NCBI GenBank assembly: GCA_017302165.1
Contig: JAFLCW010000001.1
Coordinates: forward strand, 744,001-808,000
Direction: 5' to 3'
Length of the DNA stretch: 64,000 bases
From: Alphaproteobacteria bacterium
GTDB lineage: Bacteria > Pseudomonadota > Alphaproteobacteria > Micavibrionales > Micavibrionaceae
The stretch's first letter is position 1, and the number at the start of each line of letters is the position of its first letter. This document shows, in pieces, positions 32,827 through 38,434 of the stretch. The position numbers were made by a program, and so were the translations under genes. The notes beneath the pieces were generated by a model. The model ran no database searches and was not told where the DNA came from. It saw nothing but the letters and a program-made list of their open reading frames with translations.

Positions 32827-34164
32827 ATGCGTATCAATAATGAGTATGATGTGGCGATTGTCGGGGCGGGCGTTACGGGTCTCACGGCGGCAATCCGTCT
32901 GGTCGAGATTGCTCAGCAACAGCAAAAACCTATTCCGCGTGTTGTGGTGCTTGAGGCGGATCAAGAACCGGGGGGACGCATGCGTTCTCAGACACTATCC
33001 AACGGCCTTTCTATTAACATCGGTGCCCATTGGGGACACGGCGGATTGAATAACCAATTTTTTCGATGGGCGATTAATCGTTATGATCTCACGGCCTGCC
33101 CTCTGGATACGGCAGAAACACGGATGACTTTTTCAGATCATTCCTGCCTTGATAAGGGCTTTATGGATCATGCCATGACCAGAATAACAACTGCATGGGA
33201 GTGTTTTAAACGCCGTCAGGCCGATCAAGGAGATAGATCTGATCTGAGTTTGACATCGTTAGTGAGAAAAATAGACGATCTGTCCACGTCATTATTTGCC
33301 CAATATAAGTCCGCAGTCTGGATGGGAGTGCATGACCCGGCCGAGGTATCCATGCGGGAATTCATCGAAGATCCCAATGGTTCTGGTGGTCTGGTGATTG
33401 ACGGGGGAAATGATGTAATCATCCGGTCGATGATCGGTGAATTGGCGCAACGTAATATATCCGTTGTCATGGGTTCCACCGTTCTGTCGGCTCTGCATGA
33501 GCCGGATGGATCCTCTGTACATCTGCGCGTTCGGGATGAAGAATATAGTGATTACAAGGCATCTCAATGCCTCATCACCACGTCGGTGGGCGTGTTAAAA
33601 GCCAGCGCGATTGATTTTGATCCCCCTGTCTTTTCAGCCCTTCGACCTGTGCTGGCCGATCTATCCATGGCACAATTCAATAAGGTTATTGTGCCGTTAA
33701 AGACCGACTTCATGAAGGCGTCTGGGGTTGAGGTAGATACACATATAGCTGTTCTATATAGCGATCATCCAAACCCGTATCTGGTTCATATGAACCCGAG
33801 CGGTAAACCGATCGCCACTCTTTTTGTCTCGGACAAGGAATCGAGATATGTGGAACGCCTGAACCAATCTGATCTCCTGCATTGGACACGGTCAGTTTTA
33901 ACCCGTGTCACACCCCTTCAGGATTTTGAATCACATCTGGATGGTGACATTGTCGCCACAAAATGGGGGGAAAACCCCCTTGTTCGCGGCGGGTATTCAA
34001 TCCTGCGTCCAGGCGGTCTACGTCACGACCCCATTTCTAGCGGGCGTATCACGTTTGCCGGCGAGGCCTTTTGTGCCAGCCAAGAACATAGTCCCAGTCA
34101 GGTTGAGGGTGCCTATCATTCCGGGCGTATGGCCGCAGAGAGCATATTCCCAAAACTAGGATAA
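32827..34164 (+). CDS. FAD-dependent amine-oxidase-like flavoprotein
   Basis: A 445-residue protein with the Rossmann FAD motif VAIVGAGVTGLTAAIRLVE at residues 9-27, the acidic end VVVLEADQEPGG and the GRMRS motif of the amine oxidase/protoporphyrinogen oxidase/phytoene desaturase superfamily. The C-terminal FAD motif is ITFAGEAFCASQEHSPSQVE with GAYHSGRMAAE, as in monoamine and polyamine oxidases. LITTSVGVLKA also matches monoamine oxidases. No signal peptide; cytoplasmic. The substrate cannot be told from sequence; polyamines or tryptophan-like amines are the family norm. It converges on the lectin-flagellin gene, overlapping it by 9 bases at the stops. Confidence 0.85.
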   Translation: MRINNEYDVAIVGAGVTGLTAAIRLVEIAQQQQKPIPRVVVLEADQEPGGRMRSQTLSNGLSINIGAHWGHGGLNNQFFRWAINRYDLTACPLDTAETRMTFSDHSCLDKGFMDHAMTRITTAWECFKRRQADQGDRSDLSLTSLVRKIDDLSTSLFAQYKSAVWMGVHDPAEVSMREFIEDPNGSGGLVIDGGNDVIIRSMIGELAQRNISVVMGSTVLSALHEPDGSSVHLRVRDEEYSDYKASQCLITTSVGVLKASAIDFDPPVFSALRPVLADLSMAQFNKVIVPLKTDFMKASGVEVDTHIAVLYSDHPNPYLVHMNPSGKPIATLFVSDKESRYVERLNQSDLLHWTRSVLTRVTPLQDFESHLDGDIVATKWGENPLVRGGYSILRPGGLRHDPISSGRITFAGEAFCASQEHSPSQVEGAYHSGRMAAESIFPKLG

Positions 34165-35520
34165 AAGCCGCGTAATATAGTTCTGGAAGGATAGCCGTAA
34201 GGCTTCGGTTTGTAATTGTTTGCGCACCTGAAGCGCCAGAAGTTCGGCACCTGTTTCCTTTTCATCCCCAATGACCAGATCACGCGCGCCATCCTCATGT
34301 ACTTGGATGGTATCCTGCGTGAAATTAAGCCGGATGGAAATAATGCTCATATCCACCGACAGGCTGGCAAGATAACTGCGCAGGGTTTGACGTGCCGAAA
34401 ACACGTCATCTTGGGCGAGGGTGAGTTTACTGAGTGTTAGAAAATCACGAGTCATCAACCCCAAACCTTGGGATGTGGCTGTGATCCCTTCGGTTGTCAG
34501 GGAACTGGTATGTTCCGGGTTGAAAAATGTTTTGACGCTTTCACCGATTAACAGACCGACACCCCGGAACTGAGAATCTTTGGCGATTTGGTCAATCTGT
34601 TCCAGAATGAGGGCATATTCCCGGGCATAGCTCTCCGCCCGCGCAACTAGCGCGGGGTCAGCCGCCGATACAAACAGGCTTGAATCCCACTCGATCAAAT
34701 AATTAAACGATGTGCCGCCATTTTGATCGTTCCACCGTCCATCAGCGCGCAAATGGACATGATCTTCGTTGCCGCCGGAATTGTTAGGTTCGCCACCGCC
34801 CCAATTCGCATAGGAACCGCTGACGGTTGTTCCGCCTGCTCCCCCCTGCCAGAATTGCTGGCCGCTTTCAGGCCCGGATGTCCATCGCCATTCACCCTCG
34901 ACGGCGGTGTCGCTTCCCCCGATCCATGTGCTTGAGGCCGTCAGCGCATCCAGAAAATCATTTTCCTGCTGTGACGTGATATTGGCCAGATGCCCTGTCA
35001 CCCCGGCGACGCCCGTGACCCCTGGCGGTTCGATGAGCGCAGAACTCTGGGCAATCGCGTTGGCTGTCGCCCAATTCGCCGGTCCGCCCAGCCGATAAAA
35101 ACTTTGTGTGACGGGGGAGTACGTCACGCCCGGGTTCGCCGCGAGGATGGCTGTAATATCGTCATTGCTTAAGGACGTCACGAGCGAGGTGAGGGTGCCG
35201 GCATAAAGCTCGGCTCTGGCTTCATCGAGTAGGGCATCTGCTTGATCAATCAGTTTTAAAATCGCGGTGATCCCCGTGTTGGCAGTATTCACCGCGCCAA
35301 CCCCTAAAGAGATCCCGTCCAAAATTCGGGTCAGGTCACTGGCCTTCTGCGAGAGAGCACGCGATAAAAAAAAGTTGGACGGGTTATCAAGTGCCGAGTT
35401 GACGTCTTTCCCCGAGGCCAATTTCAACTGCACCCGGTCAATCAGCGTGCTGGTTTTTTTAATCGACTGAACAACGGACAGTTGAACACCCGATAACAGG
35501 CTTCCGATTTTGCCCACCAT
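34156..35520 (-). CDS. Flagellin with inserted C-type lectin domain
   Basis: A 454-residue flagellin. Residues 1-115 are the N-terminal D0/D1 helices (VQLKLASGKDVNSALDNPSN, alphaproteobacterial style) and residues 290-454 the C-terminal D1/D0 helices (ending ELLALQVRKQLQTEALRLSF). Between them, about residues 130-281, lies a C-type lectin-like domain with nearly every hallmark: GHLANITSQQENDFL, TWIGGSD, EGEWRWTSGP, YANWGGGEPNN, EDHVHL, GRWND and FNYLIEWD. The calcium/sugar motifs EPN (244-246) and WND (263-265) are intact; the disulfide cysteines of animal lectins are missing. The domain takes the place of the surface-exposed D2/D3 region of flagellin. Its start has an AGGGCG site. A sigma-54 promoter lies 78 bases upstream. 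A FlgL-like hook-filament protein is the alternative. Confidence 0.88.
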   Translation of the reverse strand: MVGKIGSLLSGVQLSVVQSIKKTSTLIDRVQLKLASGKDVNSALDNPSNFFLSRALSQKASDLTRILDGISLGVGAVNTANTGITAILKLIDQADALLDEARAELYAGTLTSLVTSLSNDDITAILAANPGVTYSPVTQSFYRLGGPANWATANAIAQSSALIEPPGVTGVAGVTGHLANITSQQENDFLDALTASSTWIGGSDTAVEGEWRWTSGPESGQQFWQGGAGGTTVSGSYANWGGGEPNNSGGNEDHVHLRADGRWNDQNGGTSFNYLIEWDSSLFVSAADPALVARAESYAREYALILEQIDQIAKDSQFRGVGLLIGESVKTFFNPEHTSSLTTEGITATSQGLGLMTRDFLTLSKLTLAQDDVFSARQTLRSYLASLSVDMSIISIRLNFTQDTIQVHEDGARDLVIGDEKETGAELLALQVRKQLQTEALRLSFQNYITRLLS

Positions 35521-35597: not shown

Positions 35598-35613
35598 TGC
35601 AAACCCTGTGCCA
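35598..35613 (-). promoter_or_regulatory. Sigma-54 (RpoN) promoter of the flagellin-lectin gene
   Basis: On the minus strand TGGCACAGGGTTTGCA has GG and GC elements separated by exactly 10 bases and matches the RpoN consensus TGGCAC-N5-TTGCA at every fixed position. It points at the flagellin start codon, with a predicted transcript start near 35587 and a leader of about 67 bases. Late flagellar genes of alphaproteobacteria are commonly RpoN-dependent. Confidence 0.8.
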
Positions 35614-35665: not shown

Positions 35666-35741
35666 TGGTGGCGGTGGAGGGACTTGAACCCCCGACACAA
35701 GGATTATGATTCCTCTGCTCTACCGGCTGAGCTACACCGCC
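35666..35741 (-). tRNA. tRNA-Met (anticodon CAT), elongator type
   Basis: The minus strand folds into a full cloverleaf: acceptor GGCGGTG with CACCGCC, D arm GCTCAGCCGGTAGAGC, anticodon stem GAGGA/TCCTT around ATCATAA, and T arm GGGGG-TTCAAGT-CCCTC. Discriminator A and a genomically encoded CCA follow. The D-loop lacks the initiator features and the acceptor has a normal first pair, so it is elongator Met; a lysidine-modified Ile(CAU) tRNA cannot be fully excluded. Confidence 0.9.
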
Positions 35742-36059: not shown

Positions 36060-37259
36060 ATGAAAAAACTGCTTGGATTAGGGGGTGTTATTGGCGGAGC
36101 CATTGCTGGTTTTACTGCAGGAGCTACTAGTTTTCTCAAAGACTCAATGTCTATTTTTGGAGGTTATAGCGGTCCTAACTCCCCAGCTGGCCGTGTTTCT
36201 GAAAACGTCAAGCAGACTGAACTTTTTACTTCCATTACCACTGGCGTAAGAGGGTTTTTTGTTGGTATCGCGGAGTTTTTTAAAATTGTTAGCGATCTTA
36301 TGTCGGGTAAAATTGATTTCCGCGGCATGATGAATGGTACAGTCGATATTAAAGGTGCCTTGGCCTCCGCAGATAACCGCGCACCTGATGCCAGACCGAC
36401 CACTCCCGATCAAGTGTTAAGAAATATTCCTAGTGCTTTGTCAGGGTTAGCGGCAGAAAACCCTGCAACTGGCACTGTTGCAACAACTTCTATCGCTGCA
36501 TCCCTCTTAAGTCGTGTTACTAACGGTTCTTGGAACCCCCTGAATGTATTTAGAGGTGTCGCCCCTGCAGGTCTTGTGGCACAGACAGCTGACGATGCTG
36601 GACGTGGTTTGGGTGGTGTTTTGAAAAGCGTTTTGGGTAAACTTCCTTGGTACGGTAAGGCAGGTGTTCTTGTAGGTGTCGGTGTAGGTGCTAACAGCAT
36701 TTTATCCAGTGATGCTTTGGCCGCGCCTTCTACACCTGTTGCTCCACTTAATCGTACGCCTTCGGGTGTTCCGGCGATTGCACCTGTTGTGTCTGAAACG
36801 GCACCAACCGGGCGGTCACTCGCTATTAATGCCATCAATGGTGCCTACAGCGGTGCTTTAAATGGAGTGGCTACGTTTGCGGGTGCCCCTGTGGATGGCG
36901 CGACATGGCTGATCAATAAAACGGTTGGTCGTGGTCTTGGCTTTCAAATTGATCGCCCGTTTTTAGGAAGCGAGAGCATCAATAATGGATTAACAGGTCT
37001 CCGTGGTGCGTATCACCGTGCCACTGGCAATGATCTGGATCGTGTCCAGCCTGCAAATACCGCGGAACGTGTGGCCTATGAAGGTGCTTCATTCGCTGGT
37101 AACTTGGCGGCCTCTGGCGGTGCCTTGGGATTGTTGAGAGGAGCTTGGGCAAAAGTAGCTTCGGGTGTATTTACACCAACGGCTCCTGTATCTCATGCGG
37201 CTCCCATATCTCGTCCTGCGCTTGCTGGTGGAACGATGGACGGGTTCCACATGAACTAA
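36060..37259 (+). CDS. Orphan Gly/Ala-rich protein, possible exported or membrane-active protein
   Basis: A 399-residue protein of no recognised family. The N-terminus (MKKLLGLGGVIGGAIAGFTA) is hydrophobic and glycine-rich, like a two-residue-basic leader or membrane-inserting segment. A second hydrophobic glycine stretch is at about residues 205-220 (KAGVLVGVGVGANSI). The C-terminal 45 residues are Pro/Ala-rich. Long Ala/Gly/Ser/Thr content and few charges recall secreted or phage-structural proteins. A good AGGAG site precedes the ATG, and a strong terminator follows, so it is monocistronic. Codon use is more T-rich (GGT, GCT) than the dcw genes. Function unknown. Confidence 0.6.
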   Translation: MKKLLGLGGVIGGAIAGFTAGATSFLKDSMSIFGGYSGPNSPAGRVSENVKQTELFTSITTGVRGFFVGIAEFFKIVSDLMSGKIDFRGMMNGTVDIKGALASADNRAPDARPTTPDQVLRNIPSALSGLAAENPATGTVATTSIAASLLSRVTNGSWNPLNVFRGVAPAGLVAQTADDAGRGLGGVLKSVLGKLPWYGKAGVLVGVGVGANSILSSDALAAPSTPVAPLNRTPSGVPAIAPVVSETAPTGRSLAINAINGAYSGALNGVATFAGAPVDGATWLINKTVGRGLGFQIDRPFLGSESINNGLTGLRGAYHRATGNDLDRVQPANTAERVAYEGASFAGNLAASGGALGLLRGAWAKVASGVFTPTAPVSHAAPISRPALAGGTMDGFHMN

Positions 37260-37474: not shown

Positions 37475-38434
37475 ATGAGCGGCGGCATTTTAAGTTGGAT
37501 TTTTGGTGTTAGCACAGGTTCAGCACTGGACAGGGTTGCAAATATGGCCAATCATAATCTGGCGTTTAATGCGATGGTTCCTTATGCCCCGTCCTTGAAA
37601 GCTTTCGCCAATAATGATGAATTCAAAAGAGACCTTCACGCCGCATTAAAAAAACCAGAGTTCCGTAATTTTGTTCAAACAACTTTGGATCAAGGCGGGG
37701 CTGGCAAGCTAGGTGCCATGTTCAATGACCCTCAGGCACAAAGATTCGCCCCGGCACTGGTGAAGCTGGCCGCGCATGACCCAACTTTTGATACCAAAAA
37801 ACTCACGAAACTGACCAATGATTTGGCCGCACATGCCGACCTTGCCAAAATTGAAAAAGAAAAAGGGGTATTAACCCCCGAGCAGATCCAGCAAAGACAG
37901 GTCTTGCGCAAGAGCATGGCCAATGGTTTGACAGAGATGGGCGTCAATGTGGGTCTGGGTGCCAATGCGATGGACCCCAAAATTCTGTTGAACTTTATCA
38001 AGGATGTTTTTGAAAAAGGCCCCGCACAAGCCGTACAGGGGTTAATGAGTTCCTTGAAAGAGGGAGGTGCTTCTCCGCAAGCCTTGGCCGGCGTTGAAAA
38101 ATTTGGCACGTTTTTTGGGAATACACTCCAAACGTTCGGTCAGCCCTATGCAGATTTCTTTGGACATTATGGCCCTCGGATTAGCGCGAATATATCTAAC
38201 TTGACCAAGGATGCCTCAGCGATGGCCGGCGGCGGATTAACGGATCAAGCACTAGCCCGCATCGGAAGTTCTGCTAATCCTGCTGGAGACAGAGGTCAGA
38301 CAAGTCAAAGTTTTAATCCGAACGCCACAGGAGCGCGCACGGATGGATACAGACCCGAAATACCTGCGGTTACTGGACCTCTCCCGGCTATGCCTCAAGG
38401 TCAAGGTCCCAGCATGTTTATTGGAGCGCCCTAA
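37475..38434 (+). CDS. Orphan helical protein with Pro-rich tail
   Basis: A 319-residue protein of no recognised family. A short N-terminal hydrophobic part (GGILSWIFGVSTGSALDRV) is followed by mostly helical sequence, residues 35-245, with amphipathic repeats, and a disordered Pro/Gly/Ser-rich C-terminus (about residues 265-319). No Sec signal peptide is convincing. It has its own leader of about 170 bases and its own terminator, like the preceding gene, and both have hydrophobic Gly-containing N-termini and Pro-rich ends. They may be substrates of the same secretion route, but this is only inferred. Function unknown. Confidence 0.6.
   Translation: MSGGILSWIFGVSTGSALDRVANMANHNLAFNAMVPYAPSLKAFANNDEFKRDLHAALKKPEFRNFVQTTLDQGGAGKLGAMFNDPQAQRFAPALVKLAAHDPTFDTKKLTKLTNDLAAHADLAKIEKEKGVLTPEQIQQRQVLRKSMANGLTEMGVNVGLGANAMDPKILLNFIKDVFEKGPAQAVQGLMSSLKEGGASPQALAGVEKFGTFFGNTLQTFGQPYADFFGHYGPRISANISNLTKDASAMAGGGLTDQALARIGSSANPAGDRGQTSQSFNPNATGARTDGYRPEIPAVTGPLPAMPQGQGPSMFIGAP

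What the first reader, a model, noticed from the sequence alone, without database searches (positions are those of the whole stretch)
34156..35520. Flagellin whose variable domain is a C-type lectin domain
Seen: flagellin D0/D1 helices at both ends, and between residues about 130 and 281 a domain with almost every hallmark of a C-type lectin fold, including GHLANITSQQENDFL, TWIGGSD, EGEWRW, the calcium/mannose-type EPN motif and WND. Known: flagellin hypervariable regions are surface exposed, and in other bacteria enzymes (flagellinolysin metallopeptidases) have been found inserted there; EPN-type C-type lectins bind mannose-like sugars with calcium. Inference: the filament, or a minor subunit in it, displays a sugar-binding surface, which could serve contact with prey, host or biofilm glycans. 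I know of no described lectin-flagellin system, but cannot search for it.
Basis: partly seen in the sequence, partly recalled or inferred. Interest (0 to 1): 0.92.

Follow-up and report, generated by a model that had tools for sequence, protein, structure and literature searches.

The report
Flagellin carrying a C-type lectin domain
A bacterium of the Micavibrio group, relatives of bacteria that prey on other bacteria, encodes a flagellar filament protein with an intact calcium-dependent sugar-binding (C-type lectin) domain in its exposed region, one of several glycan-binding-like domains that this family swaps in and out of a dedicated set of flagellins, which suggests a tail that can grip as well as swim.

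Summary
Confirmed, with a strand correction: the 454-aa gene lies on the minus strand (34156-35520). Flagellin D0/D1 helices flank residues 132-281, which form a C-type lectin domain (Pfam Lectin_C 1.5e-12; AlphaFold pLDDT about 95-98 there; closest solved folds are vertebrate C-type lectin domains, TM about 0.8). All five calcium/sugar ligands (E244, N246, E252, N264, D265) align without gaps to mannose-type surfactant protein D. Full-length homologues occur in 8 of 104 genomes of the family (Micavibrionaceae by record titles). None was found outside it in 385 class and 399 phylum genomes. The lectin is better conserved than the flagellin around it, the reverse of a normal hypervariable region. 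New here: it is one of several swappable passengers. Sister flagellins carry concanavalin A/LamG-like domains, or an unnamed domain also found in tandem on a GH5 cellulase. These passenger flagellins often have sigma-54 promoters (15/36 versus 0/19 canonical, p=0.0009); the window gene's site is perfect. Best reading: accessory flagellins displaying calcium-dependent lectins along a probably unsheathed filament, to grip prey or surface glycans. Sugar binding, filament assembly and prey attachment are inferred. Functional domains in flagellins are known (flagellinolysin); I found no described lectin-flagellin family.

The parts
34156..35520 (-). Lectin-flagellin gene, 454 aa, no cysteine
35170..35520 (-). 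Flagellin N-terminal D0/D1 helices (residues 1-117)
   Evidence: Pfam Flagellin_N 1.4e-11; long helices in model; coordinates checked
34678..35127 (-). C-type lectin domain (residues 132-281), at the outer-domain position of the flagellin
   Evidence: Pfam Lectin_C; PDB sequence hits; AF2 and Foldseek
34783..34791 (-). EPN motif (residues 244-246), calcium and sugar ligands E244 and N246
   Evidence: gap-free alignment with SP-D and mannose-binding proteins; invariant in 8/8
34765..34767 (-). E252, third calcium ligand
34726..34734 (-). WND motif (residues 263-265), ligands N264 and D265
34156..34659 (-). Flagellin C-terminal D1/D0 helices (residues 288-454) and stop
   Evidence: aligned to Caulobacter FljM/N/K C-termini; helix 363-453 in model
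35598..35613 (-). Sigma-54 type promoter TGGCAC-N5-TTGCA, 77 bp upstream of the ATG
   Evidence: 11/11 match, only such site on either strand of the 64 kb; RpoN present in genome
35666..35741 (-). tRNA-Met (CAT), immediately upstream; possible recombination point, not part of the protein system
   Evidence: ARAGORN

Best explanation
It is an accessory flagellin whose outer domain has been replaced by a calcium-dependent, EPN (mannose-type) C-type lectin domain taken from the family's own pool of secreted adhesin modules. SHOWN by sequence and model: flagellin ends, lectin fold, intact calcium site, conservation in eight genomes, a perfect sigma-54 promoter, and a set of sister flagellins with other glycan-binding-like passengers. 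INFERRED: the sigma-54 programme makes it alongside the other filament genes; the cysteine-free chain is exported unfolded through the flagellar secretion channel; it polymerises by its D0/D1 helices with the two other flagellins of this genome (a canonical 568-aa one and one with the unnamed domain); the lectin folds outside and is displayed many times along the filament. The filament thereby gains multivalent, calcium-dependent avidity for sugars on prey envelopes, mucilage or biofilm, helping a motile cell to stay in contact before permanent attachment. That an intact lectin is displayed on a filament I hold at about 0.75. That its role is capture of prey or particles, rather than another glycan contact, I hold at about 0.5.
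For: Domain calls. Calcium ligands align gap-free to SP-D and mannose-binding proteins and are intact in 8/8 flagellin lectins, versus 28/39 other bacterial C-type lectin domains by the same motif test. The passenger is more conserved than the chassis: mean identity 62.6% against 51.4% (N) and 47.5% (C); 51/150 invariant columns against 23/115 and 25/158; lower dN in the lectin in all pairs printed. Full-length architecture in 8 of 104 family genomes, 4 genera. Perfect sigma-54 site 77 bp upstream; sites of at least 9/11 within 120 bp in 15/36 passenger flagellins against 0/19 canonical, p=0.0009; RpoN and FlhA present. Zero cysteines in all 56 family flagellins. Alternative passengers: LamG/ConA-like and a domain found twice on a GH5 cellulase. 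Related lectin domains sit in RTX and cadherin-type secreted proteins of the family. Micavibrio has a single sheathless polar flagellum, flagellar genes are on in the prey-seeking phase, and carbohydrate receptors in prey recognition were reported in 1986 (PMC3189940).
Against: No binding, expression or filament data exist. The lectin ligand is unknown; an EPN motif predicts mannose/GlcNAc-type sugars but specificity can deviate. The other subgroup of lectin-flagellins (five copies examined: L006, L007, L056, L057, L060) shows no convincing sigma-54 site, and one copy (G035) has a frame break. The gene sits alone by cell-wall genes and a tRNA, not in a flagellar cluster. Only 8 of 104 family genomes have it, so it is not essential to the lifestyle. 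Predatory life of this organism is not known. The 1986 sugar-receptor claim was later questioned, as cited in PMC3189940.
Confidence: 0.62

Rival explanations
1. The lectin domain is a structural or antigenic outer domain only: a stable, calcium-rigidified spacer that decorates the filament without binding a sugar of note.
For: Many flagellin outer domains have no known ligand; C-type lectin folds are often used without sugar binding (own knowledge). Fold confirmed, ligand unknown.
Against: The five sugar/calcium residues are invariant in 8/8 while about a quarter of related bacterial domains lose them; the passenger evolves more slowly than the chassis, unlike a spacer or an antigen.
Confidence: 0.17
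2. Filament self-interaction: the lectin binds glycans on the cell's own flagellins or on sister cells, bundling filaments or aggregating cells.
For: Flagellin glycosylation is common in bacteria (own knowledge); a repeated lectin would cross-link glycosylated partners.
Against: A single polar flagellum in Micavibrio (PMC3189940) leaves little to bundle. Glycosylation genes were not examined; not tested directly.
Confidence: 0.1
3. Secreted rather than assembled: a flagellin-like export signal is used to send an adhesin out through the flagellar secretion route, with monomers or short pieces acting as a soluble lectin.
For: Isolated gene; Pfam Flagellin_C cut-off not reached.
Against: Both D0/D1 ends are complete and align to Caulobacter filament subunits across the C-terminus; the C-terminal region is kept in orthologues.
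Confidence: 0.08
4. Decaying or chimeric gene without function.
For: One relative (G035) has a frame break in a T run.
Against: Intact in seven other genomes, at 44-61% protein identity to the window copy, with saturated synonymous change and low dN.
Confidence: 0.03

Closest known systems
Flagellinolysins (proteolytic flagellins; Eckhard 2017, PMC5595980; Hylemonella gracilis, PMC7643111)
   Same: Flagellin ends with a functional foreign domain in the surface-exposed hypervariable region; motif conservation argues for function; restricted, scattered distribution.
   Different: Passenger is a calcium-type lectin, not a metallopeptidase; confined in our searches to one bacterial family; several different passengers on one chassis lineage; sigma-54 promoter. 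Lectin_C is not in that paper's top-10 list of flagellin domains; its supplementary list of 61 domains could not be read here.
Mannose-type C-type lectin domains (surfactant protein D, mannose-binding proteins, langerin)
   Same: Fold and gap-free EPN...E...WND calcium/sugar site.
   Different: No disulphides (no cysteine), inserted in a flagellin, bacterial branch shared with adhesins.
Micavibrionaceae RTX and cadherin-type lectin proteins (GMV2456 of M. aeruginosavorus in PMC3189940 may be of this kind; L061, L062, L066, L207 here)
   Same: Nearest relatives of the passenger domain.
   Different: Large secreted proteins with RTX or cadherin repeats, not flagellins.
Caulobacter FljK/FljL/FljM flagellins
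   Same: Closest solved D0/D1 chassis.
   Different: D0/D1 only, no outer domain.

Membership tests
Bacterial flagellin | N- and C-terminal D0/D1 helical regions | tested here: met
   Flagellin_N over cut-off; C-terminus to FljM/FljK by sequence and fold; NCBIfam flagellin. Pfam Flagellin_C itself not reached.
Bacterial flagellin | Encoded in a genome with a flagellar export machine | tested here: met
   FlhA 4.8e-257 in own genome
Bacterial flagellin | Assembles into the filament | not testable with these tools
   Needs filament proteomics or microscopy
C-type lectin domain (Lectin_C) | Sequence profile and fold | tested here: met
   Pfam 1.5e-12, AF2 plus Foldseek TM about 0.8
C-type lectin domain, EPN mannose-type | Five calcium-2 ligands at canonical spacing | tested here: met
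   E244, N246, E252, N264, D265; gap-free to SP-D
C-type lectin domain, EPN mannose-type | Calcium-dependent sugar binding | not testable with these tools
   Needs glycan array
Animal-type C-type lectin domain | Conserved disulphides of the animal domain | tested here: not met
   No cysteine in the protein; so it is filed under the fold/Pfam family, not the disulphide-bonded animal subfamily
Flagellinolysin | HExxH gluzincin peptidase domain in the hypervariable region | tested here: not met
   No peptidase family in Pfam scan; passenger is Lectin_C
Diversity-generating retroelement target (lectin-fold variable protein) | Reverse transcriptase in the genome | tested here: not met
   No RVT_1 in own genome

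The most novel reading that the evidence does not exclude
Micavibrionaceae run a modular recognition organelle: a lineage of accessory flagellins, often under sigma-54 control and separate from the canonical flagellins, in which the outer domain is exchanged between C-type lectin, concanavalin A/LamG-like lectin and a CBM-like domain drawn from the same pool as the family's adhesins and glycoside hydrolases. The filament is then a lectin array whose passenger set helps decide which cells or glycans the swimmer can hold, in predators possibly part of prey range.
Probability: 0.4. Interest if true: 0.88.

Novelty: new variant of a known kind. Interest (0 to 1): 0.78.

Why it matters
Flagellar filaments are known to stick to glycans in several bacteria, mostly without an identifiable binding domain; here a filament subunit has a recognisable, intact lectin site that can be tested and knocked out by one residue change. 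Carbohydrate receptors were proposed in Micavibrio prey recognition in 1986 and were not assigned to a molecule in the papers read here; this family offers concrete candidates. The swapping of passengers on one chassis also gives a natural design rule for displaying folded domains on filaments.

Tried and rejected
DGR hypothesis (lectin folds are typical targets): no reverse transcriptase in the genome. Conserved neighbourhood: of 13 window genes tested, only the lectin-flagellin itself is found near the homologues, so no operon partner. FlgL misannotation: NCBIfam FlgL only 0.05. First AF2 model with 8 rows was poor in residues 201-268 and was replaced. Two separate acquisitions of the lectin: drawn so in both trees but one clade is not rejected (AU p 0.369 on chassis; 0.78 on lectin). 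Sigma-28 type boxes: no difference between classes. Anti-phage defence: nothing in PADLOC. Supplementary Table 1 of Eckhard 2017 could not be opened, so a listing of Lectin_C there cannot be excluded.

Full report
CHECK OF THE OBSERVATION. The open frame of 454 residues is at 34156-35520 but on the minus strand. Pfam finds Flagellin_N (residues 13-98, 1.4e-11) and Lectin_C (175-274, 1.5e-12), both over the curated cut-offs. Against all PDB sequences the best hits are Caulobacter FljM/FljN/FljK for residues 285-447 and a long list of C-type lectins for about 167-279. NCBIfam names it flagellin (7e-38) and not FlgL (0.05). In the Caulobacter alignment the insert falls between the two D1 halves, where other flagellins carry D2/D3.

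STRUCTURE. A model from eight full-length homologues was weak within the lectin though it already matched flagellar filaments. With 39 further bacterial lectin domains added, mean pLDDT is 87.9 and about 95-98 over most of residues 130-280. Foldseek then places C-type lectin domains first: CD23, scavenger receptor C-type lectin, collectin CL-K1, ASGPR, MGL, SP-D, at E about 1e-7 to 1e-6 and TM by target 0.7-0.84. The stretch YANWGGGEPNNSGGNEDHVHLRADGRWND aligns without a gap to surfactant protein D, [29 protein letters not shown], and equal-length matches are listed for mannose-binding proteins A and C. So E244, N246, E252, N264 and D265 occupy the calcium/sugar positions of the mannose-type site.

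DISTRIBUTION. In 104 genomes of the same family, eight hold the full architecture: the window's genome, G008 and G097 (one genus), G026, and G035, G105, G116, G131 (one genus). Public contigs carrying these are titled Micavibrio sp. UBA7689 (contig of 64,056 bases, the length of G008's contig), DT-Micavibrionaceae-1, and unnamed alphaproteobacteria, so the family is taken to be Micavibrionaceae. No full-length match was seen outside it in 385 genomes of the class or 399 of the phylum; these are samples. In the class, only 9 of 385 genomes have any Lectin_C at all, and in the window's genome this is the only one.

CONSTRAINT. Mean pairwise identity is 62.6% for the lectin, 51.4% for the N-terminal and 47.5% for the C-terminal flagellin part; invariant columns are 51/150, 23/115 and 25/158. 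dN is lower in the lectin in all pairs printed and synonymous sites are saturated. Hypervariable regions normally show the reverse. The five ligands are kept in 8/8 flagellin lectins; by the same motif test 28/39 other bacterial lectin domains keep them. One copy (G035) has a frame break in a T run.

A FAMILY OF PASSENGER FLAGELLINS. Flagellins of the family fall into size classes (all 56 without cysteine). Of 48 non-C-type-lectin ones scanned, 17 carry Laminin_G_3 (ConA-like lectin superfamily) and 13 Flagellin_IN. Another 11 carry a conserved domain of about 165 residues without any Pfam, NCBIfam or PDB match; the window's genome has one of these and one canonical flagellin besides the lectin one. 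This unnamed domain also occurs in large proteins, some of which hold a C-type lectin domain too (RTX and cadherin proteins), and twice behind a GH5 cellulase (L210), the usual place of a carbohydrate-binding module. A tree of the D0/D1 parts alone groups the unnamed-domain and lectin flagellins (97/95) and nests within the lectin ones a flagellin of G010 that carries a LamG domain (96/89), that is, a passenger swap. One origin of the lectin flagellins is not rejected. The flagellin lectins fall in a supported set with lectin domains of Micavibrionaceae adhesins (SH-aLRT 99); the related proteins examined are RTX- and cadherin-repeat proteins. The lectin-coding part is richer in G+C (58%) than the flagellin parts (52% and 50%).

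REGULATION. TGGCACAGGGTTTGCA, a perfect sigma-54 promoter, lies 77 bp upstream of the ATG on the correct strand, and is the only perfect match on either strand of the 64 kb. Among family flagellins, 15 of 36 with passengers have a site of at least 9/11 within 120 bp, against 0 of 19 canonical ones (Fisher p = 0.0009; related genes are not independent). Within the lectin-flagellins the three of the window's own subgroup have sites of 10-11/11, the five of the other subgroup do not. The genome encodes RpoN and FlhA. Sigma-54 control of flagellins is known in Caulobacter (own knowledge).

MECHANISM. Shown: parts, conservation, promoter, passenger swapping. Inferred: export, co-assembly as an accessory subunit, calcium-dependent binding, adhesion. 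Micavibrio has a single sheathless polar flagellum, expresses flagellar genes in the attack phase, and carbohydrate receptors were reported in its prey interaction (Chemeris and Afinogenova 1986), later questioned (all as given in PMC3189940). A lectin on an unsheathed filament could hold the swimmer near sugar-bearing prey or mucilage. Predation by this organism is not established.

WHAT IS KNOWN. Flagellinolysin is the precedent for a working foreign domain in the flagellin hypervariable region; that survey found 61 domain families, with no C-type lectin among the ten commonest, although a Sialidase family is tenth (PMC5595980). A 2021 review of filament functions does not mention lectins (PMC8306008). 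Searches of open full text found no lectin-flagellin; subscription papers and the cited supplement were not readable. Hence: new variant of a known kind.

Noticed in passing
window 35666-35741; L055 2814-2890; L036 9254-9430 and 11049-11134; L035 7468-7554: The lectin-flagellin gene lies within about 150 bp of a tRNA gene in the window (Met), in L055 (Met) and in L036 (Gln, with Thr beside it and Tyr just downstream), and 1.4 kb from a tRNA-Leu in L035, hinting at movement by tRNA-site recombination.
   Followed up: partly
L210 1236-3491 (G023): GH5 cellulase with two copies of the unnamed flagellin passenger domain at its C-terminal side: candidate new carbohydrate-binding module family.
   Followed up: partly
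L031 460-1983 (G010): Flagellin with a LamG/ConA-like passenger nested among lectin flagellins by its D0/D1 parts, and with a perfect sigma-54 site 63 bp upstream.
   Followed up: partly
L208 1773-11699 (G025); L207 1505-6910 (G026): Giant cadherin-type (3308 aa) and RTX (1801 aa) proteins combining a C-type lectin domain and the unnamed domain.
   Followed up: partly
window 36060-37259 and 37475-38434: Two adjacent proteins without any confident Pfam family, just beyond the flagellin promoter region.
   Followed up: no
window 34678-35127: The lectin-coding segment has 58% G+C against 50-52% in the rest of the gene and 51% in the window.
   Followed up: partly
L036 10548-10600 (G035): Frame break in a T run in one lectin-flagellin copy; sequencing error or recent loss cannot be told apart.
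   Followed up: no
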